From contig JAISEM010000037.1 in the NCBI GenBank assembly GCA_031264105.1, positions 1-32,786 on the forward strand: 32,786 bases of DNA, in the 5' to 3' direction. The translations under genes and the position numbers were made by a program. The stretch is from Endomicrobium sp. (lineage in GTDB: Bacteria; Elusimicrobiota; Endomicrobiia; Endomicrobiales; Endomicrobiaceae). The stretch's first letter is position 1, and the number at the start of each line of letters is the position of its first letter. Positions 15,236-26,503 of the stretch are shown here, piece after piece. The notes below the pieces were generated by a model. That model was not told the origin of the DNA and searched no databases. It saw nothing but the letters and a program-made list of their open reading frames with translations.

Positions 15236-15880
15236 ATGACTTTACTTACTGTATTCATATATGTTGTAGTTTTTATTTTCTCTGCTATTATCCATGAGGT
15301 TTCCCACGGATACGTTGCACATTTAAGAGGCGACAACACTGCAAAACTTATGGGACGTATTACCCTCAATCCTTTATCTCATATAGAACTATTTGGGAGT
15401 ATTCTGCTTCCAGCAGTGCTTTTATTTTTAAAATCTCCAATACTTTTTGGTTGGGCAAAGCCTGTCCCCATAGATTCAAGAAATTTTAAAAATCTAAAGT
15501 TAGATATACCACTTGTTTCTTTAGCCGGACCATCTGCGAATTTGTTACTTGCATTGGTTTCTGGTCTTGGAATCCGCCTTATAGGAATGTTCTCTAATTT
15601 TGAAGTAGGGTTTGGAGCTTCAATACAATCCTTCTTATATATAATGCTTGTAATAAATGTTATTCTTACAATAATAAATCTTATGCCTATACCTCCGTTA
15701 GACGGGTCAAAAGTTGTCACTTATTTTATGCCAAGAGATGTAGCAGAAAAATATATGAATCTCAATTCTTTTATTTGTTTAATAGCATTACTTTTGCTAT
15801 TATCTTCAGGTGTGGTATGGACTTTGCTACATCCTGTAATTAATTTTTTTGTAGTAACTTTTAGCGGAATTCCTTACTAA
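15236..15880 (+). CDS. Site-2 protease family (M50) membrane metalloprotease
   Basis: Short intramembrane-type zinc protease of the S2P/Rv-like 'FtsH-less' minimal group. The zinc motif HEVSH (H20, E21, H24) sits in the first membrane helix and the third ligand motif NLMPIPPLDGSKV (D156) in a later helix. About five to six hydrophobic segments are present, with no PDZ domain, so it is the compact form (214 aa) common next to trpS and scpAB in many bacteria. The substrate is unknown. AAGGA lies 7 bases before the start. Confidence 0.9.
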   Translation: MTLLTVFIYVVVFIFSAIIHEVSHGYVAHLRGDNTAKLMGRITLNPLSHIELFGSILLPAVLLFLKSPILFGWAKPVPIDSRNFKNLKLDIPLVSLAGPSANLLLALVSGLGIRLIGMFSNFEVGFGASIQSFLYIMLVINVILTIINLMPIPPLDGSKVVTYFMPRDVAEKYMNLNSFICLIALLLLLSSGVVWTLLHPVINFFVVTFSGIPY

Positions 15881-15898
15881 TTTTAAGCGAGTTAAAAC

Positions 15899-16891
15899 AT
15901 GAAAAAGAGAGTATTGTCCGGTATGCGTACAACCGGAAGACTTCACTTGGGACACTATTTTGGGACACTTCGCAATTGGGTTAAACTTCAAGACGAATAC
16001 GATTGTTATTATATGGCATCAGACTTGCATGCTTTAACTACGGAATATGCGGATACATCTAAAATTAGCGAGAATACTTTTGAGATGGTTACAGATTGGC
16101 TTACAGTAGGGTTAGATCCAGAAAAATCAGTAATTTTCAAACAGTCTGCAGTACACGATCACAGCGAATTATTCTTAATACTTTCAATGATAACACCTCT
16201 GGGTTGGCTGCAAAGATGTCCAACATATAAAGATCAGATAAGAGAAATAAAAAATAAAGATTTAAATAATTACGGCTTTTTAGGATATCCAGTCCTAATG
16301 GCTGCAGATATTTTTCTTTATAAGGCAAACTTAGTGCCTGTAGGTGAAGACCAGCTTTCTCATTTAGAGTTTACGCGTGAATTAGCTAGAAGATTTAATA
16401 ATTTTTATGAGGAAGTTTTAGTTGAACCTCTTGAACTATTTTCAGAATCAGCTAAAGTTCCTGGTATTGATGGGAAAAAAATGTCCAAATCTTATGGAAA
16501 CTCTATATTACTTGGCGAAAGCGATGATGCAATAAAAGAAAAAGTAAAAAATATGTTTACAGATCCGCTAAAAATAAAAAAAGATGATCATGGGCATCCT
16601 GATGGCTGTGTAGTTATAAAGTTCTATGAAATATTTTCAAAAGGTTCTGATAAATGTCCAAGTTTTAATCAAAAAGAAGAAGATTGTAAGACAGGAGTCA
16701 TAGGTTGTTCTATATGTAAAAAACAGCTTACTGAAATGCTTTCCGAGTTTATGAAGCCGTTAGCTGAGAAGAGAAAAACTATTATTTCAGACAAAGCTTA
16801 TTTGGAAAAAGTCATAATAGAAGGTAGTAAAAAAGCTGAAGAATATGCTCACAAAACTATGGCTGAAATCCATAAGGCATTGAAATTTTAG
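15899..16891 (+). CDS. trpS: Tryptophanyl-tRNA synthetase, probable Fe-S-cluster type
   Basis: Class I synthetase charging tRNA-Trp. The HIGH-type motif is HLGH (16-19) and the KMSKS motif is at 194-198. The dimer and Trp-binding regions (ASDLHALTTEY, PTYKDQIRE, VLMAADIFLY, VPVGEDQLSHLEFTR) are all intact. C237, C263, C270 and C273 form a C-x25-C-x6-C-x2-C array. Thermotoga maritima TrpRS holds a [4Fe-4S] cluster with C-x22-C-x6-C-x2-C at nearly the same positions, so a cluster that helps anticodon recognition is likely here; C253 is an extra cysteine between the first and second. Length 330 aa is normal. It lies in one operon with the protease and scpAB. Confidence 0.95.
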   Translation: MKKRVLSGMRTTGRLHLGHYFGTLRNWVKLQDEYDCYYMASDLHALTTEYADTSKISENTFEMVTDWLTVGLDPEKSVIFKQSAVHDHSELFLILSMITPLGWLQRCPTYKDQIREIKNKDLNNYGFLGYPVLMAADIFLYKANLVPVGEDQLSHLEFTRELARRFNNFYEEVLVEPLELFSESAKVPGIDGKKMSKSYGNSILLGESDDAIKEKVKNMFTDPLKIKKDDHGHPDGCVVIKFYEIFSKGSDKCPSFNQKEEDCKTGVIGCSICKKQLTEMLSEFMKPLAEKRKTIISDKAYLEKVIIEGSKKAEEYAHKTMAEIHKALKF

Positions 16892-16900
16892 AGGATTGTT

Positions 16901-17749
16901 ATGGCATACGACATTCATCTTGATGCTTTTGAAGGTCCTTTAGATCTTCTTCTTCACTTGATAAAGAAGAATGATTTGGAAATAAACGAGATAAAAATAG
17001 CTGAGATTACAGCTGAATATCTCTCTTATTTGGACTTAATGAAAGATCTTAATATAGATGTCGCTGGCGAATTTCTCGTTATGGCTTCTACCCTTATGCA
17101 GATAAAGGCAAAATCTTTGCTTCCTTGTGAGAATGGAAAAGATGTAGAAGAAGATGATAGTTTTGATCAGTTAAAAAATAGATTGCTTGAATATCAAAAA
17201 TATAAAGAAATTGGGAAACTGTTATCTTATAAGATTACGGAAAATTCGCAAGTTTATTATAGACCGGCTTCTCTAGTAAGCAAACAAGATTTTATTTTAA
17301 ACGCTACTATTTTTGATTTGGTGAGCAGCTTTCGTGACGCGTTGATAGCTCTTCCAGAAAATATAAAAGAAATTATGTATCAAGAAATTCCTATTGAAAA
17401 TAAAATCAGGGAAATTCTTGATATTTTAGAGGGAAAACAACATGTCTCTTTTACTGAAATATTGAAACTCCAAAATACTAAAATGGCGCTTATTGTTTGC
17501 TTTATGGCTATTTTGGAACTTATAAAAAATAAACAAATTATTGCAAAACAGTCGGAATTATTCTCAGAGATTAGAATTTATAAAGTTTATAACGACGAAA
17601 GAGAATTAGATCAATCCAATGAAGACAATAATACTTTTGAGTTTGTTGAAAACGGAGATCAGGCGGAGCAAACAGAACAAGTAGAGGAAACTCCTGCCAC
17701 AAATTTGGAATTAGTTCCAGAAACCGATAATACAATTCAAGGGGAATAA
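16901..17749 (+). CDS. scpA: Segregation and condensation protein ScpA
   Basis: Kleisin subunit of the bacterial Smc condensin. The N-terminus has the family signature FEGPLDLLLHLIKKNDLEINEIKIAEITAEYL, then GEFLVMASTLMQIKAKSLLP, and a C-terminal winged-helix part (VSFTEILKLQ ... VCFMAILELIKNKQI). The tail after residue ~240 is acidic, rich in Glu and Gln, and probably disordered. Length 282 aa is normal. scpB follows after one base, so the complex partners are made together. Confidence 0.95.
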   Translation: MAYDIHLDAFEGPLDLLLHLIKKNDLEINEIKIAEITAEYLSYLDLMKDLNIDVAGEFLVMASTLMQIKAKSLLPCENGKDVEEDDSFDQLKNRLLEYQKYKEIGKLLSYKITENSQVYYRPASLVSKQDFILNATIFDLVSSFRDALIALPENIKEIMYQEIPIENKIREILDILEGKQHVSFTEILKLQNTKMALIVCFMAILELIKNKQIIAKQSELFSEIRIYKVYNDERELDQSNEDNNTFEFVENGDQAEQTEQVEETPATNLELVPETDNTIQGE

Positions 17750-17750
17750 G

Positions 17751-18413
17751 ATGGAAATATCCGAAGTTAAAAAAATTTTAGAAGCATTGCTTTTTGTTTC
17801 AGAAAGACCTCTAAGTTTAAAAGAATTAAAGGATATAGTTAAAGCAGATTTTTCTGACATTTCTAATTTAGAAAATATTTTAAATGAACTTAAAGAAGAA
17901 TATGCTGTTCTAAATAAACCTTACGAGATTAAATTCGTAGCTAATGGTTGGACTTTTGCTACAAAACCCGAATATTCTCCTTGGATAAAAAAACTTCTAA
18001 AAGAAAAAACAGTTTTAAAACTTTCTCCATCAGCATTAGAAACGCTTGCCATGATAGCATATAAACAGCCAGTAACAAGAGCAGAAATTGACGAAATTCG
18101 CGGTGTAGAATCTTCTGGAGTAATAGACACTCTTATTGAAAAAAAACTTATAAAAATTGTTGGAAGGAAAGAAGTTTTAGGAAAACCTTTACTTTATGGT
18201 ACAACTCAAGATTTCTTAAAACACTTTGGTCTTGCACATTTAAGTGAGCTTCCTCTTATTGAAGACACGCCTAAAGAAATGCAACAAACATATGACATTC
18301 CAGAACTAGAACTTCCTTTTAACACTGAAAAAATTGAAGAAAATAATATCATAGTAGACAGTTCTTTATCAGAAGAATTTGATGTGCCACAAGATAACGA
18401 ATTGATAAATTAA
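17751..18413 (+). CDS. scpB: Segregation and condensation protein ScpB
   Basis: Winged-helix dimer that binds ScpA and regulates Smc. Signatures: VKKILEALLFVSERPLSLKEL near the start, the central LSPSALETLAMIAYKQPVTRAEIDEIRGVES, and GRKEVLGKPLLYGTT. The last 50 residues are acidic and of low complexity. Length 220 aa is usual. It is the final gene of this operon; the next 88 bases carry a candidate promoter for the kinase locus. Confidence 0.95.
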   Translation: MEISEVKKILEALLFVSERPLSLKELKDIVKADFSDISNLENILNELKEEYAVLNKPYEIKFVANGWTFATKPEYSPWIKKLLKEKTVLKLSPSALETLAMIAYKQPVTRAEIDEIRGVESSGVIDTLIEKKLIKIVGRKEVLGKPLLYGTTQDFLKHFGLAHLSELPLIEDTPKEMQQTYDIPELELPFNTEKIEENNIIVDSSLSEEFDVPQDNELIN

Positions 18414-18501: not shown

Positions 18502-21500
18502 ATGTCTGAACGATCTCAGATTAGTTTAGATACATCTTTGTTTATCAACAACCGATATGTTACAGTTAAACAAATAGGAAAAGGTGGTTTTGGTATTGTA
18601 TGGCAAGCTTACGACTTTAGTTTAAAGAATTTTGTTGCAATAAAAGAACTCCTTCCTGAATTTTCTGATCAAAAGTTTGTAGAGATGTTCTACAAAGAAG
18701 CACTCATCGCTAAAAATATTGTACAAGATAACATAGTAAGAGTGCGGCACTTCTTGGAAGATAGCAAGGGATCTTATTGTCTCATCATGGATTTTGTCAA
18801 CGGCAGTGATCTTGAAAACATCATAAAAAGGTGTAATCAATATCAAAATTCCTTGGGAGTTTTCTGTTTTAATATGCATAAATATATTAAGGGCCCTGGA
18901 TTATGCCAATCGCATAGCTAAAGATCCTATAACAGAAAAATTTTATGGATTAGTATATAGAGACATATCACCTGGAAACATTCTTATTTCTTATGAAGGA
19001 AATATTAAACTTAGCGATTTTGGTATCGCAGAAACTGCTGACGAAATAAATTCTGGCGTAAAGCAGAAAATTGTAACAGGCAGAATTTCTTATATGTCTC
19101 CAGAACAAGTGAAAGGTGTAGCTGGTATTGATCATCGCTCAGATATTTTTTCTATGGGGCTAGTATTATACGAAATGCTTACCGGGAAACAATTGTTTTC
19201 CGGCAGCAACGATGAAATAAAGTCAAGAATTTTAAATAAAGACTTTGATGCTAATTTATTAAATGATCTTGGACTACCTTTTGAAATAGCAGAAATTTTA
19301 ACTAGATCTCTTCAGAGAAACAGAAATGCAAGGTATGAACGCTCAATTGATATGTACCGTGATTTAAGAAGAATTCTGAAGGGAATTGAAGATGAAGAAA
19401 TCGTTTTAGATTTAGCATCCTTTGTATTAAAGATAATGGATAGAGAGCATTCTGAATCAGTTCATATTGCTAATCTTGCCAAATCTTTGGATAAAAAAGA
19501 AATAATAAGTAATCCCTCAACTATTAAAGTTAATGCTAATGATTTTATGGGTGGATATATTCCAATAGAAGAAGATAGTTCAAAAATAAATCAAACGCCA
19601 ATTTCAGAAACTCCTATTCAATTTCAATCTCAAAGAGATCAAGAGGTCAACTAGAACAAACAGAAGCAAAAGGAAAGACGGTCTTTGAAGAAGTTGGAGA
19701 CTGGTTTATAGCTAAAGTCAAACTCGTTAAGGATAAAGTAATAAAAATTATCATGAGTTTTGTTATTGCTACATTCATTTTTTTTAGGGCTGGATATTTT
19801 TCTTCATATTACGTCTTTTGGGAAAAATGTATATGCGCGACTAAACCCTCCTGATGTTATTATAATGACAGTTCCTTCTGGCGCTACAGTAACAATGAAA
19901 ACGAAAGATGGAGACATTGTTGTTGAAAATGCAAATTCATTATCGCCAATAGCTTTAAGAAAAGTACCCACAGTCTTATATAATTACAGCATCTAAGAAA
20001 GGCTTTAACACTGTTGAAAGAGTTGTAAGAATTGAAGAATCTACAAAAAATAGTAAAACAAAACAAGAAAAAATAGAAATAATATTTGATTCTGATCTTA
20101 ATATAAATTCAGTATCTCAGAGAGCAGAAACATATATAGATGGCAATAAATATGGAGTTACTCCATGTATTGCTCAGCTTTCAGCAAGAGCTCATACAGT
20201 AAAACTTTTATTTCCAGGATTTGAAGAATTAGGATCTGAAGCAAAAGAATTTATTGAAGGACAATGCGGCGTGGATTTCTCAAAAACAGAACCAAACGAA
20301 ATATTCTCAGAAGTTGACATAATAGTCTTGTAATGATTAGTGCCGCAGGATTTATATATGGATGGGATCTTGTTACAGGACAGCAACTTTGGAAACAGAT
20401 TGAACTATTTAATTCTGATGTAACCTCTCCAATGCTTATTGATATAAACAACGACGGAGTAAAAGATATTATAGTATTGTCTGACTCTGGAATGCTTTTC
20501 ATATTTGATGGGTAAACTGGAAATATAATAAGAGCGGAATAATTTCAGAAATGACTCCTTTAGTCGCAGATTTAAATGAAAACTGAAAACAGGATATTGT
20601 TGTATGTTCAGAAAATGGTACAATCCATTTTCTCTATAATGTAGGATATGAAAACGACTATGAAAAATATTCAGATTTTGTTGAAGGTCCTCTTCTTGCA
20701 AGTCCAGTACTCTATAAAGCAAAAGATATCTCTCCAATGGTTGTAGTGGCAAACAATAATGGTAAGGTATATTTTATAGATGGAAAAACAAGAGCAAAAA
20801 AGACAGTCGATCTTTTTGAGAAAACGGGAAAAGTTCATCTTATTGCAGGAGCTCCTGCCGTTGGAGATATAAATGGCGATGGAATTCCAGAGGTTGTTGT
20901 TCAAACAAATATTCCTCAATATGTTTCTGCTATAGATGTAAAAAACTTTAATGTTTTATGGACTTTTTTTTGTAGAACCTACCCCTCCTGCAGACTTAAG
21001 ACATAATGCTACTCCTTTAATTTCAGATGGTAATGTATTTGTAGTGCCTGTGAATGGAACAATTTATAATTTAAAAGGCAAGACCAGTTATCCTTCCGGA
21101 GAACTCTTGTGGAAACTTAAGATTCCAGATGGCAAAAGAATGATAGGCTCACCATCTAAGTTTGATTTCGATAAAGATGGTCATGATGATTTTGCGATAG
21201 GATCTGAAGAAGGGAAAATAAGTGTTATAAAAAACAATACAAAAAGAAAAGAGTTTGAAATTATTGCTGAAATTAAAGCAAGCAATAGTCCAATAACTTC
21301 TCAACCTTTGGCTGTTGACGCATTTGGAACTGGGAAATTAAACATTCTATTTGTAAATTCAAATAATGTTATACAAGCAGTAAACACTAATGCAAAAACT
21401 ATAAAAAATTTTACTCCGTGGCCTATGTTTCTTGGAGGACCTTCTCATACACCAATACAAAATATTTCAAAATATAAACTAAAATACAGAGCCATATTCT

Positions 21501-21589
21501 TTGGCGGAATTTTAATATTTATATTGTTTATAACATTTAAAGTTTTAAGGTCAAATTTCTATGAAAATTTCGTATTATGCGAAAACTGA
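18502..21589 (+). pseudogene. Broken transmembrane Ser/Thr kinase with PEGA and beta-propeller regions
   Basis: Reassembled across frames this is one protein of about 1,030 residues. The kinase comes first: GKGGFG at 26-31, VAIKE (K48), YRDISPGN as catalytic loop, DFG and SPEQ. A linker leads to a membrane helix (IIMSFVIATFIFF), then two PEGA-like units (PSGATVTMK; AETYIDGNKYGVTPC), then FG-GAP/PQQ-like propeller blades (DINNDGVKDIIVL, DINGDGIPEVVV, DFDKDGHDDFAIG) and a last membrane helix (GGILIFILFITF). Lesions seen: extra G at 18855-18857; shift near 19640; T-run 19778-19785; shift near 19980; TAA/shift at 20331; TAA 20513; shift at 20531-20545; TGA 20584; extra T in 20964-20971. Kinase catalytic residues are unaltered, but no full product can form. 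The propeller could have been a separate gene (TAATG at 20331-20335), but a blade strand (VDIIVL) lies before that stop, favouring one gene. Confidence 0.85.
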
Positions 21590-22980
21590 TGTTGGTGCAG
21601 TAAGAACCGAAAATCAGGATTTTTACGGAATAAACCCTGACAAAAGTTTGTTTATTGTGTGCGATGGTATGGGAGGCGGTGCTGCAGGAGGATTTGCAAG
21701 CAGAGCTGCTGTAGAAGTAATGCTGAAATCTTTTGACAAACTAACTTTAGACAATATAAAAGGTATTACAGGAAACGGAGGATTAAACGACGAAAATCTC
21801 CGCCCAGCTGCATCAATAATGCTTGCAAACAGATATCTAAATAATTTAACTCTAAAATATCCAAAACTTAAAGGAATGGGAACTACGGCAGTTGCCGCAA
21901 AATTTGAACCGAAAACAGGTTTGTTACGCGTTTATCATACTGGTGATAGCAGATTGTACAGATTTAGAGCAGGTGTTTTAGATCTTTTAACAAAAGACCA
22001 CTCTAAAATAAATGAGCTAATTGATGCTGGAAAAATGAAAGAACAAGATGCAAAAAGCGCTGAAATACAAAGCATAATAACTAGAACTGTTGGAATCGAA
22101 CCTACAGTAAAAGTTGATTATGTTGCTTATGAAGTAAAAGAAGATGATTGCTATGTAATGTGCAGCGATGGTCTTAACAGCGAAATAAATGACAATGTTA
22201 TAAAAGATATAATTGAAAAAAATATTTCTGATTTAACATCTTTAACTAATAATCTTAATAGCTCAAGCCAATAAGGCAGGCGGCAGAGACAACACTACAG
22301 TCATAGCTCTAAAGATAGAAGCGGATAGACAAACAACGCAATCGCCAACCGAGTATATAAATACAGTAGTAACGCTTAGCGATAGCTCTCAAAGGCAATG
22401 CTTACTTGAAGATAAACTCTTATCTAGCTTTGCAAAATTTTTTGTATTTACTCTTCCTAAAGAAGCTAAAGACTCAATACTTAAAAAACCTTTTATGCTC
22501 GCAATATTTATAGCAACATTAGCAGTTTGTTTAGTGCTTATATATTCGCATTATTCAAAAGAAGAGAGCAAGGATTTTACAGAAATTACAGGTAAAGCTT
22601 CTGGTATTTTGCTTGATATAAGAGAACTAAAAAAAGAACAACTTGATACTATAAATGCTTCTACTGACAAAGTCTCTAAACTTGAATTGCTTCAGGAAAC
22701 AGTAAAACAAGAAAACGAATACATTACGCCACTTCCTGAAGTACAAGTTCTAATAGAACAAGTTGATGGTTCAAATAAATTTATTGGTATTTCAGAGCTT
22801 TCTCCTATTGTTATAAAACTTCCTGCAGGTATTTACAAACTATCTTTAAAATATTTAGATTTTAAGATTTTAGATGATGATTATAACTTAGTAGATTCTT
22901 TACAATTGCCAATTGAGTTGTCAGAAAGTTTAAAGCCTAAAATGGTAATAATGTTACCCGAAAAAAAGGAGAACAAATGA
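21561..22980 (+). pseudogene. Frameshifted PP2C-type Ser/Thr phosphatase with membrane anchor and extracytoplasmic domain
   Basis: The natural partner of the kinase. PP2C motifs are in order: DVGAVRTENQD, VCDGMGGG, GMGTTAVAAKF, HTGDSRLYRFRAG, TRTVG and MCSDGLNSEI in the first frame. A single-base shift at about 22245-22257 moves the last motif, GGRDNTTVIALK, into the next frame. That frame continues to a membrane helix (about 22490-22545; LAIFIATLAVCLVLIY) and a ~145-residue outer domain that looks PEGA-like or beta-rich at its end (VQVLIEQVDGSNKFIG, IKLPAGIYKLSLKY). All metal-binding Asp residues remain; only the reading frame is lost. It starts 29 bases inside the kinase gene, and its TGA overlaps the next ATG. 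Confidence 0.85.
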
Positions 22981-23285
22981 GTAAGAAAAAAAATATTTAT
23001 CATTGATGACGGCATAACGTTTTTGGATTCATTAGAGATAGTCCTTCTAAAAGATTTTGATGTTGTAAAAGCATATAGTGGAGAAATATTTTATGATGTT
23101 TTATCAAAAGAAAAACCAGATTTAATTCTTTTAGATGTAAATTTGCCCATCTGCCTGTCATTATGATTACTGGAGATGCAACTGTACACATAGATAAAGC
23201 ATTTTCCGCTGGAGCTGACGATTGTATATTTAAGTCTATTAATATTGAAGATCTTATGTCTTGCATACAAAGACTCATAAAATGA
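22977..23285 (+). pseudogene. Decayed stand-alone response-regulator receiver domain
   Basis: Corrected for one base in the A8 run near 22988-22995, the sequence starts MSKKKIFIIDDGITFLDSLE, with the acidic pair of a CheY-like fold. It then gives KPDLILLDVNLP with the phospho-acceptor Asp, followed after a junction at about 23148 by LPVIMITGDATV and AGADDCIFKS with the conserved Lys. The helix-3/strand-4 segment between DVNLP and LPVIM, normally some 20 residues, is missing, so a real deletion as well as a frameshift has occurred. No output domain is present. Start and stop overlap both neighbours by four bases (ATGA). Confidence 0.8.
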
Positions 23286-24965
23286 AAAAGAAAATTTTTT
23301 CAGTTCTTGCGGCTGCCATATTTTTAAATAATAATCTTTATGCAGCAGCAGCTATTCCTGCTGACAACATTTTCCTTTTAAATTATGACTCAGTTTCTGA
23401 AGGTGCTGGTGGATCTGCCTTAGCATTTTCCCAAAACTCACTTTCATTTATCAACTCGCCATCTTCAAATTATGACGTTTTAGCGGCAAGGTTGGATTTT
23501 GCAGGAATAACGATATCTGACAATATTTCTGGTGGGTTGTGCTCTGTAATGCTTCCTACTGCAATAGGAAATTTTACAATAGCCGGATCATACAATAAAG
23601 TTTTATCGTCAGGTATTACTATTCCAGATGGAGAAAATCTTTTAAATAATTATTCAATATATTTAAACTATGTTTTCCCCTTCATTATAAAAAATCCAGT
23701 TTATGAAAATATAGGCGGCATAGGAATAACTTTAAAGGACTATAGCTTTAGCGCTCAAGGCAATTCTAAGATTGCCCTTGCTTTTGATATAGGCGGGCAG
23801 TACAATATAAAAGTTATAAGCGACAATTTATGGGCAGCTATAGCTTTTAGGAATGTTGGTGATAAAGTAAAAATTTCTGAATCAGGATCTTTTGATATTC
23901 TCCAGAATTTTGATTTTGCCTCGCTATACAATTTTTATGGTTCTTTAAAACCTGCAATTATGTGTGATATCCTTCAATTTTTTAAAACAAATAAAAACTG
24001 GTTACGTTTTTGGCGCTGAAATTGCACCTTTTTATCCTGTTATTTGTAGATCTGGATGGAGAAATTACGATGGCTCAATATTTAAAGGTGTTACTGTTGG
24101 ACTATCACTTAATTTTGACTCTATAAATATAGATTATGCTTTTTCATCTATGAATTCTGGCTATGATGTAAAACATACGGTAAGTATGGGCTTTTTGATA
24201 GGAAATGTATTCAATGCAAGCAAATCTTATGACTATTATCTAGGGATAAATTTTAATAAAGCTAAAGAGGCATATAAAAGAAAAGACTATATAAATGCAA
24301 GACAAATATTTGAAGAAATTCTCGTTTTATGCCCTGATCATGAGCCTTCTAAATGCTATTTAAAAAAAATAGCATATGACCTAATCTCCAATGATAGATC
24401 TCTAGAAATCGCTATACAAAAATATTTAATTAAAGCTAATCATGAGTTCAAAGCAAATAATCTTTTTAAAGCTCAAAGCTATTACAATAAAGTACTTGGA
24501 ATTGATACGGAGAATGTTGAAGCTCAAAATGGAATTAAACAAATACAAACAACTTTTAAACAAATAGAGCAGCAAAAAAACGGGCGAAAAAATGCAGATA
24601 AAATTATATTGTTATGGAAAGAAGGGGTAGAATTGTATAACGATAAAAATTTTGTATTGGCAAAAGAAAAGTTCAAACAAATTATTGATATTGACTCAGG
24701 CAACGCAGGAGCCTTAAAATATTTAGATCTTATAGAAAATAAAATAGAAAGAGTCTCTTCTTCTTAGGTGAATACTGTTTTTAAAGAAGCAATGGAATAT
24801 TACAAAAATAAAAATTACGAAAAAGCTTCGCAATATTTCAATGCAGTATATACTGCAGATCCAAGTCGTAATGATGCAAAAAACTACTATGACCTTTCAA
24901 TAAAAGAATTAAACAAAAAAAATCGAAAAAAAGTCTTTAAGATAAACTTAGTATCCACAATTTGA
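23282..24965 (+). pseudogene. Broken PorV/UPF0164-like outer-membrane protein with C-terminal TPRs
   Basis: A signal peptide (MKKKIFSVLAAAIFLNNNLYAAA) is followed by SEGAGGSALAFSQNSLSFINSPSS, the start typical of PorV/UPF0164-type barrels, and many alternating beta strands (GNFTIAGSYNKVL, NIGGIGITLKDYSF, WAAIAFRNVGDKV). An extra A in the run 23993-23997 shifts the frame; the barrel then finishes (GYVFGAEIAPFYPV, VTVGLSLNFDSINIDYAFSS) and TPR-like helices follow (INFNKAKEAYKRKDYINARQIFEEI). A TAG at 24765-24767 interrupts the TPR region, which continues in the same frame as FKEAMEYYKNKNYEKASQYF to 24965. ATG 23282 is fixed by the signal peptide and the overlap with the receiver gene. Function inferred: surface assembly or transport; no specific role can be named. 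Confidence 0.75.
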
Positions 24966-25028: not shown

Positions 25029-26503
25029 ATGAATATTCTAATTGTGGCATCAGAATGTTTTCCTTTTGTTAAAGTAGGTGGTCTTGCCGATGTTGTTGGG
25101 GCTTTTCCAAAATATTTAAAAAATCTGGTCATGATATAAGAATAATATTACCAAAATATCAGTCTATAGATGGCAATAAATACAATCTTCAAATCCTACC
25201 TTATAAACTACAAACCATAGTTGGCAAAGACACTGAAAATTTTAGATTAAAATATTGCCTTATAAAAGACAATATAACAGTCTATTTCATTGAGAATATG
25301 CATTTTTTTAACCGACCTGGAGTGTATGGAGCAAACGGACTTGATTATGGAGACAATAAAGAACGTTTTATATTTTTCCAAAAAGCAGTGTTAGAATCTG
25401 TTAAAGCTTTAATGTTTAGGCCAGATATCATACACTGCCATGACTGGCAAACAGGACTAATCCCTGCATATCTAAAAACAAATTTAAAGAATGATGGATT
25501 CTTTTGGAATACATCTTCGGTTTTTACTATACATAACATAGCTTATCAAGGACAATTTGATGCAGGCACAGTAAGCACAGCAGGCTTTTCTTGGGAGGAC
25601 TTCAACTCAGATAAGCTAGAGTATTACAACACTATCAACTTTATGAAATGTGGCATAAAACTATCAGATGCAGTTTCAACCGTAAGTCCTACATACGCCA
25701 AAGAAATAAAAGATTTTAATGGTAGGAGAATGGAAATTATCCTAAATTCAAGGCAAGACGAAATTTACGGTATTCTAAATGGTATAGATTATGGTTATTG
25801 GAATCCAGCACTAGATAAATATATAAAGGCAAACTATTCAAAAAATGACTTTAAAGAAAAAGCTATCTGCAAAGAAGAACTACAGAGGTTATGTGGTTTT
25901 GAAATAAAAAAAGACGCTTACTTACTTGGTTGCGTATCAAGACTGGACGAACAAAAAGGATTTGACATAATAATTGATACATTTTACAAACTAAATAATG
26001 CTGATATACAATTTGTTGTTTTAGGTTCAGGAAATCTTGAAATAAAACACTATATTCAGGAAGCTGTAAAAAAAATGCCTAGCAGAGTTGCTGCATTTTT
26101 TGGCTATGATGAACTATTGGCTCATAAAATATATGCTGGCTGCGATGCTTATATGATGCCTTCAAAATTTGAACCTTGCGGTTTAAGCCAAATGATAGCA
26201 TTAGCTTATGGAACACCTCCTATTGTCAACCGTACAGGGGGACTTTCTGACACAGTAACATATTATAACCATTTCACAAAAGAAGGGAATGGTTTTATGT
26301 TTAATATAACTTATGGTGAAAATTTTGTACGGACAATACTAAAATCAGAAAAAATATTTAAAGATAAGAAAAATTGGAATACCTTAATGAAAAATGCTTT
26401 TGAAAGCAACTTTTCATGGGAGAAATCATCCATTGAGTACGAAAAAATGTATAATATAGTTTCGTTAAACAAAAAGAATGAAAATATTTTTATGGGGAGT
26501 TAA
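25029..26503 (+). pseudogene. glgA: Glycogen synthase GlgA with a single frameshift
   Basis: ADP-glucose-dependent GT5 glycogen synthase. The 5' part ([31 protein letters not shown]) holds the ADP-glucose-binding K-x-G-G-L motif and stops after the A-run at 25118-25123. One more A would restore [14 protein letters not shown] and a full reading frame of about 490 residues. All later motifs are intact: HCHDWQTGLIPAYL, TIHNIAYQGQF, NGIDYGYWNP, SRLDEQKGFD and EPCGLSQMIALAYGTPPIV. Length equals the family norm. A TATAAT at 24996-25001 may be the -10 of its own promoter. This is a very recent pseudogene, a slippage-rescued gene, or a sequence error. Confidence 0.88.

What the first reader, a model, noticed from the sequence alone, without database searches (positions are those of the whole stretch)
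18502..24965. A whole kinase-phosphatase-receiver-outer-membrane operon decaying as a unit
Four successive genes are all disrupted while the genes upstream (site-2 protease, trpS, scpAB) are intact. The start/stop overlaps (29 bases, then ATGA twice) are still there, so they were one translationally coupled operon: Ser/Thr kinase with beta-propeller, PP2C phosphatase, lone receiver domain, and PorV/UPF0164-like barrel with TPRs. The set suggests a signalling system in which a periplasmic sensor propeller and PEGA regions control a kinase/phosphatase pair, linked to an outer-membrane protein. I know of no described system with exactly this gene order. It may be functional in free-living relatives and be lost after host restriction.
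Basis: partly seen in the sequence, partly recalled or inferred. Interest (0 to 1): 0.85.

Follow-up and report, generated by a model that had tools for sequence, protein, structure and literature searches.

The report
Decaying kinase-controlled surface-display operon
The window holds the freshly broken remains of a nine-gene operon, intact in related gut and groundwater bacteria, that seems to couple a protein kinase and phosphatase pair to outer-membrane machinery resembling the type IX secretion system, and which endosymbionts of termite gut protists have lost several times.

Summary
All the genes at 18502-24965 are broken; the nearest relative searched, G009, has intact copies. The "kinase with beta-propeller" is not one gene: a deletion of about 6.03 kb (relative to G009) fused the 5' part of a PEGA-kinase gene to the 3' part of a separate FHA-FHA-membrane-propeller gene and removed everything between. 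The intact operon has nine genes: kinase-PEGA, secreted protein, protein with a type IX (T9SS) sorting domain, PorV-like barrel, coiled coil, FHA-propeller, PP2C, receiver, PorV-like barrel with TPRs. In 37 of 37 named loci found by the propeller gene the recognisable genes keep this order; 11 have all nine full length. Decay is recent, and loss happened repeatedly among the endosymbionts. The genomes also carry a SprA-like translocon; all 7 genus members with an intact propeller gene have it. My reading: Ser/Thr phospho-signalling across the envelope controls T9SS-like surface display. Decay and operon content are shown; the T9SS link is supported but incomplete; control by phosphorylation is inferred. 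GldL and GldM gave no match (controls silent too), PorU's catalytic part none over cut-off. I found no paper describing this operon in the library searched.

The parts
18502..20322 (+). Gene 1 remnant: Ser/Thr kinase domain, one membrane helix and PEGA regions; about the first 605 of 973 codons, with four frameshifting indels
   Evidence: intact copy L044:8035-10956 (G009); Pfam Pkinase and PEGA on the G016 copy
20310..20322 (+). Junction of the deletion of about 6.03 kb (rest of gene 1, genes 2-5, both FHA domains and first membrane helix of gene 6); the two G009 flanks share GACA here
20310..21553 (+). Gene 6 remnant: FG-GAP propeller and C-terminal membrane helix of an FHA-FHA-membrane-propeller protein; two nonsense changes, -13, +1, -31
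   Evidence: intact copy L021:5988-8168
21561..22980 (+). Gene 7 remnant: PP2C phosphatase with a membrane helix; one +1 frameshift near 22257
22977..23282 (+). Gene 8 remnant: lone receiver domain; +1 near 22986 and a 55-base deletion at 23148
23282..24937 (+). Gene 9 remnant: PorV-like barrel with TPRs; +1 near 23993, CAG>TAG, +2 near 24915
15236..18413 (+). Intact upstream context: M50 peptidase, trpS, scpA, scpB
25029..26503 (+). Downstream glgA with a 1-base deletion at 25118 (context, not part of the operon)

Best explanation
The segment is the recent wreck of a nine-gene operon of Endomicrobia. Steps shown: gene content, order, coupling, deletion and lesions; intact copies in relatives; repeated loss in the symbiont genus. 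Steps supported: genes 3 and 4 look like a T9SS cargo with its PorV-type shuttle, gene 9 like a second PorV-family barrel with periplasmic TPRs, and the same genomes carry a SprA-like translocon that could pass gene 3 through the outer membrane. Steps inferred: kinase (cytoplasmic kinase, periplasmic PEGA) and PP2C (cytoplasmic phosphatase, periplasmic tail) set the phosphorylation of a threonine target; the FHA domains of gene 6 read it in the cytoplasm while its propeller contacts periplasmic or outer-membrane partners; the receiver adds a two-component input, as the CheY-like domain of PorX does at the Bacteroidota T9SS motor. The set thus switches display of a surface protein on or off. 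Inside a protist cell that surface function is no longer needed, and the operon decays before the SprA-like gene does.
For: Intact nine-gene copies: 11 of 37 loci with all nine full length, 37 of 37 in order, plus-strand rows of 45 bits or more only. 4-base overlaps: genes 2-3 in 17 of 19, genes 6-7 in 30 of 32. Gene 3: T9SS type A sorting domain over cut-off (23.3 and 29.4 against 23), 5 of 6 members matched; its model's best PDB match is PorU, E 1.2e-12. Gene 4: 7 of 7 members match PorV_fam; its model's best PDB match is a chain of the T9SS RemA-CTD complex. Gene 9 of G038: PorV_fam 93.1 against 90. SprA-like protein: TIGR04189 E 6.6e-49 in G038 and 2.2e-37 in the window's own genome; a 15-sequence profile finds only SprA in the PDB, E 2.9e-36. 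In 41 genomes of the genus, 7 of 7 with an intact propeller gene have the SprA-like frame, against 7 of 34 others (P = 1.5e-4). G018 is losing both.
Against: The SprA-like proteins stay under the curated cut-off (166 and 128 against 200 bits; 0 of 15 genomes over it). GldM 0 of 13 and GldL 0 of 11, both with silent controls. PorU matches, 0 of 11 genomes over cut-off, fall almost wholly on its C-terminal sorting part. Gene 4 of G009 and G038 is under the PorV_fam cut-off (68 and 60 against 90), and its fold ties with FadL-type channels. Gene 9 of G009 does not match PorV_fam; 4 of 10 members do. The gene 3 domain also resembles FlgD. SprA-like genes occur in all 24 relatives outside the genus that I checked, many without this operon, so SprA does not depend on it. 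The window's genome has the SprA-like gene but no sorting-domain match. The SprA association is not corrected for phylogeny or genome size (within genomes of 1.1 Mb or more: 6 of 6 against 4 of 10, P = 0.034). Four symbionts keep genes 1, 6-9 without 2-5. No phosphorylation data exist here.
Confidence: 0.55

Rival explanations
1. Same decayed operon, but it controls an adhesin or envelope structure that has nothing to do with a SprA-type translocon; PorV-like barrels act as FadL-type channels and the gene 3 domain is a general FlgD-type Ig fold.
For: FadL-family structures tie with PorV for the gene 4 model; FlgD matches; no motor found.
Against: Sorting-domain model over its cut-off, PorV models in 7 of 7, SprA-like gene in every genome with the intact propeller gene; sorting-domain genes lie just upstream of PorV-like genes elsewhere in the phylum, 10 of 47 rows checked and none in another arrangement.
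Confidence: 0.3
2. A threonine-phosphorylation pathway like that of type VI secretion (kinase, PP2C, FHA protein), here steering another envelope machine.
For: Kinase, PP2C and FHA are all present; the propeller protein matches the T6SS FHA model TIGR03354 weakly (38.9 bits, cut-off 120).
Against: None of the nine genes matched a T6SS structural family in the Pfam and NCBIfam scans made; T6SS genes were not sought in the genomes.
Confidence: 0.08
3. Sequencing or assembly error in a metagenome bin.
For: The window is one of 54 contigs of an incomplete bin; five indels of one base, three of them +1 in A or T runs.
Against: Nonsense substitutions, deletions of 13, 31 and 55 bases and a 6-kb deletion are not error types of this kind; nine upstream genes are clean; other symbionts show independent decay.
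Confidence: 0.03

Closest known systems
Type IX secretion system of Bacteroidota (SprA/Sov, PorV, CTD cargo; PorX/PorY control)
   Same: SprA-like translocon in the genome, PorV-family barrels, sorting-domain cargo next to a barrel gene, a receiver domain
   Different: Ser/Thr kinase, PP2C and FHA proteins in one operon with cargo and barrels; no GldL or GldM match and no PorU catalytic match over cut-off; another phylum
Type B cargo with cognate PorP/SprF shuttles in Flavobacterium (PMC12618676, abstract seen)
   Same: Cargo gene linked to the gene of its own outer-membrane shuttle
   Different: Here a type A-like sorting domain with a PorV-type barrel, plus a signalling set
T6SS threonine phosphorylation pathway PpkA/PppA/Fha (recalled)
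   Same: Kinase, PP2C and FHA protein encoded together
   Different: FHA fused through the membrane to a propeller; PorV-type barrels; no T6SS gene among the nine
PknB/PrkC-type PASTA kinases with Stp phosphatase
   Same: Membrane kinase and PP2C pair; Stp1 model 199 bits, cut-off 230
   Different: PEGA in place of PASTA in the kinase scanned

Membership tests
Type IX secretion system | SprA/Sov translocon in the genome | tested here: inconclusive
   Clear homology (E 6.6e-49; profile to PDB SprA E 2.9e-36) but under the curated cut-off, 0 of 15 genomes over it
Type IX secretion system | PorV/PorQ-family shuttle | tested here: met
   Family level only: gene 4, 7 of 7 members match PorV_fam at E 0.001; gene 9 of G038 over cut-off; no equivalog model reached
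Type IX secretion system | Cargo with type A sorting domain | tested here: met
   Gene 3 over TIGR04183 cut-off in G009 and G038; 5 of 6 members match
Type IX secretion system | GldL/GldM (PorL/PorM) motor | tested here: inconclusive
   0 of 11 and 0 of 13 genomes, controls silent
Type IX secretion system | PorU sortase | tested here: not met
   0 of 11 genomes over cut-off; matches lie almost wholly in the C-terminal sorting region; not every T9SS cargo needs a sortase (recalled)
Type IX secretion system | PorK/PorN ring | not tested
   No search left
T6SS threonine phosphorylation pathway | STPK, PP2C and FHA protein in one locus | tested here: met
T6SS threonine phosphorylation pathway | T6SS structural genes alongside | tested here: not met
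   None among the nine genes scanned; not sought elsewhere in the genomes
PASTA-type kinase | Extracellular PASTA repeats | tested here: not met
   Pfam finds Pkinase and PEGA on L025 copy, no PASTA
Decaying gene cluster | Lesions concentrated in the cluster, intact orthologues in the sister | tested here: met
   15 of 17 lesions in the operon, P = 2.7e-6; intact in G009

The most novel reading that the evidence does not exclude
Endomicrobia, and Elusimicrobiota more widely, run a divergent T9SS-like export route (SprA-like translocon, PorV-type shuttles, sorting-domain cargo), and this operon is a self-contained module in which Ser/Thr phosphorylation sensed on both sides of the inner membrane decides when one cargo is displayed, a control layer not known for T9SS.
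Probability: 0.35. Interest if true: 0.8.

Novelty: new variant of a known kind. Interest (0 to 1): 0.62.

Why it matters
T9SS is described as limited to Bacteroidota or to the Fibrobacteres-Bacteroidetes-Chlorobi group (search listings; passages). A SprA-like gene, PorV-type barrels and sorting-domain proteins in every one of 24 Elusimicrobiota genomes checked outside the symbiont genus would widen that, and the operon would give it Ser/Thr kinase control. The genus also offers a natural series of intact, half-lost and vanished copies, so one can ask in which order a trans-envelope signalling system is dismantled inside a eukaryotic cell.

Tried and rejected
Rejected: one fused kinase-propeller gene; sequencing error as the whole cause. 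dN/dS: the window-branch omega of the operon is 0.31 against 0.13 on the G009 branch, but the difference is not significant (2dlnL 2.46), omega = 1 is weakly rejected (5.28), and flanking sets give 0.19 to 0.24 on the window branch; the outgroup is far (t above 1), so this supports recent decay but cannot date it. Plasmid search: no match. Single-sequence PDB search with the SprA-like protein and profile searches with gene 4: nothing. Pfam finds nothing in the SprA-like protein. Genes 2 and 5: gene 2 gave no Pfam family in G009, and gene 5 gave only weak coiled-coil matches; the N-terminal block of gene 5 looks SLH-like to my eye only. Structure jobs went to genes 3 and 4 alone; the gene 3 model is middling (pLDDT 75.7, TM 0.27 to PorU, many generic Ig matches).

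Limits: the genome-contig scan used two peptide patterns and could miss divergent copies. Absence in small, incomplete bins may be missing sequence. Two of the 37 loci (L074, L084) are from one isolate, and L087 holds decayed fragments only. The trpS tree has 30 of 41 genus genomes. The adjacency count used the top 47 non-genus sorting-domain rows and 108 of the listed PorV-like rows, from capped lists.
Full report
Observation. The window is the whole of contig C48 of an incomplete genome, G000: 986526 bases, 54 contigs, 82% complete. Against G009, window 18502-24937 carries 15 small disabling lesions and one deletion of about 6.03 kb, while nine upstream genes carry none. Downstream, glgA and an S41 peptidase gene have one 1-base deletion each.

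Anatomy. In G009 the FHA-FHA-membrane-propeller gene (726 codons) is separate from the kinase gene. The window's kinase remnant runs into the propeller at 20310-20322, where the two G009 flanks share GACA. Lost between them are the 3' part of the kinase gene, genes 2 to 5 and both FHA domains. What is left are five remnants of nine genes.

Intact operon. Gene 1: Ser/Thr kinase with PEGA (Pkinase and PEGA on the G016 copy); VAIK, YRDISPGN and DFG are present in the G009 copy, with one predicted membrane helix and two CxxC motifs at the C-terminus (meaning of motifs recalled). Gene 2: secreted protein. Gene 3: sorting-domain protein. Gene 4: PorV-like barrel. Gene 5: coiled coil. Gene 6: two FHA domains, helix, FG-GAP propeller, helix. 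Gene 7: PP2C with a helix. Gene 8: one or two receivers. Gene 9: PorV-like barrel with TPRs. A scan of genome contigs with gene 6 gave 37 loci, titled as Endomicrobia or other Elusimicrobiota save one called Paludibacter. In 37 of 37 the recognisable genes lie in this order and 11 have all nine at full length (plus-strand rows of 45 bits or more; many of the rest end at a contig edge). Genes 2-3 overlap by 4 bases in 17 of 19 and genes 6-7 in 30 of 32. Four symbiont loci (L060, L061, L062, L066) lack genes 2-5 but keep the rest; L083 lacks 2-4, as does G035. In seven other genomes of the genus the kinase gene follows scpB directly as here, and in G035 one further frame intervenes. A rearranged version occurs in G057, of another family in the phylum.

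Decay. The operon lesions fall far above the flank rate (15 of 17, P = 2.7e-6). dN/dS shows raised but not significantly changed omega on the window branch, which fits recent decay. In the genus, 7 of 41 genomes have an intact propeller gene, 4 have broken copies (G000, G018, G026, G063) and 30 have none detected. On a trpS tree of 30 of the 41, the window's genome is sister to G009 (100/100); G005 and G013, without the gene, come next, and G026 (broken) and G023 (intact) lie in the same clade of eight, so at least three losses happened there. Mies et al. 2024 (PMC11257099; [quoted passage not shown] its main text had no match for secretion, pseudogen or signal transduction.

Link to T9SS-like export. 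Gene 3 passes the TIGR04183 cut-off in both copies scanned and 5 of 6 members match. Gene 4 matches PorV_fam in 7 of 7 members, and its model (pLDDT 80.8) is closest to a chain of the T9SS RemA-CTD complex, Z 31.0, tied with FadL-type channels (that this chain is PorV is recalled). Gene 9 passes PorV_fam in G038, but only 4 of 10 members match it at all. A SprA-like protein of about 1770 residues is in the window's own genome, frame whole, and a match is found in 24 of 24 relatives outside the genus. In the genus the frame is free of stops in 13 genomes, has one early stop in G026, is in broken pieces in 6 and undetected in 21. All 7 with an intact propeller gene are among the 13. Counting G026 as whole, 7 of 7 against 7 of 34 gives P = 1.5e-4, and 6 of 6 against 4 of 10 in genomes of 1.1 Mb or more gives P = 0.034; neither is corrected for descent. 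Sorting-domain matches over cut-off occur in 24 of 24 relatives outside the genus and 13 of 35 in it. Against a full T9SS: no GldL or GldM match with silent controls, no PorU match over cut-off, SprA-like scores under cut-off.

Mechanism. I infer that kinase and phosphatase set a phosphothreonine mark read by the FHA domains of gene 6, whose propeller faces the periplasm, and that this steers export or display of gene 3 protein with genes 4 and 9. The receiver may act as the CheY-like domain of PorX, which binds the T9SS motor protein GldL when phosphorylated (PMC10951265, passages). Cargo genes beside their own shuttle genes are known in Flavobacterium (PMC12618676, abstract).

Literature. 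Searches listed no paper whose title or abstract start describes this operon. Of the five papers that hold both Elusimicrobi and type IX secretion, the passages seen do not place a T9SS in that phylum. Preprints and most subscription papers are not in this library.

Noticed in passing
G035-G058 (whole genomes): 24 of 24 Elusimicrobiota genomes outside the symbiont genus have a SprA-like match, PorV-like barrels (2-37) and sorting-domain matches (1-81); sorting-domain rows are followed by a PorV-like row within 1 kb in 10 of 47 checked.
   Followed up: partly
window 25118 and 28728: glgA and an S41 peptidase gene each have a 1-base deletion against G009.
   Followed up: partly
L034-L043: Another kinase-PP2C set, with an FHA gene next to it in seven of the ten loci, in other Elusimicrobiota; the kinase is about 830-860 residues and the PP2C about 270, a different arrangement from the operon here.
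   Followed up: no
C-terminus of gene 1 in G009, G016, G035, G038: Two CxxC motifs in 4 of 4 kinases examined, on what the single predicted helix would make the periplasmic side; zinc site or disulfides.
   Followed up: no
L088: A record titled Paludibacter carries this operon with Endomicrobiaceae-like sequence, probably a wrongly binned contig.
   Followed up: no
G018:C34 and G018:C25: One symbiont has both this operon and the SprA-like gene in pieces.
   Followed up: partly
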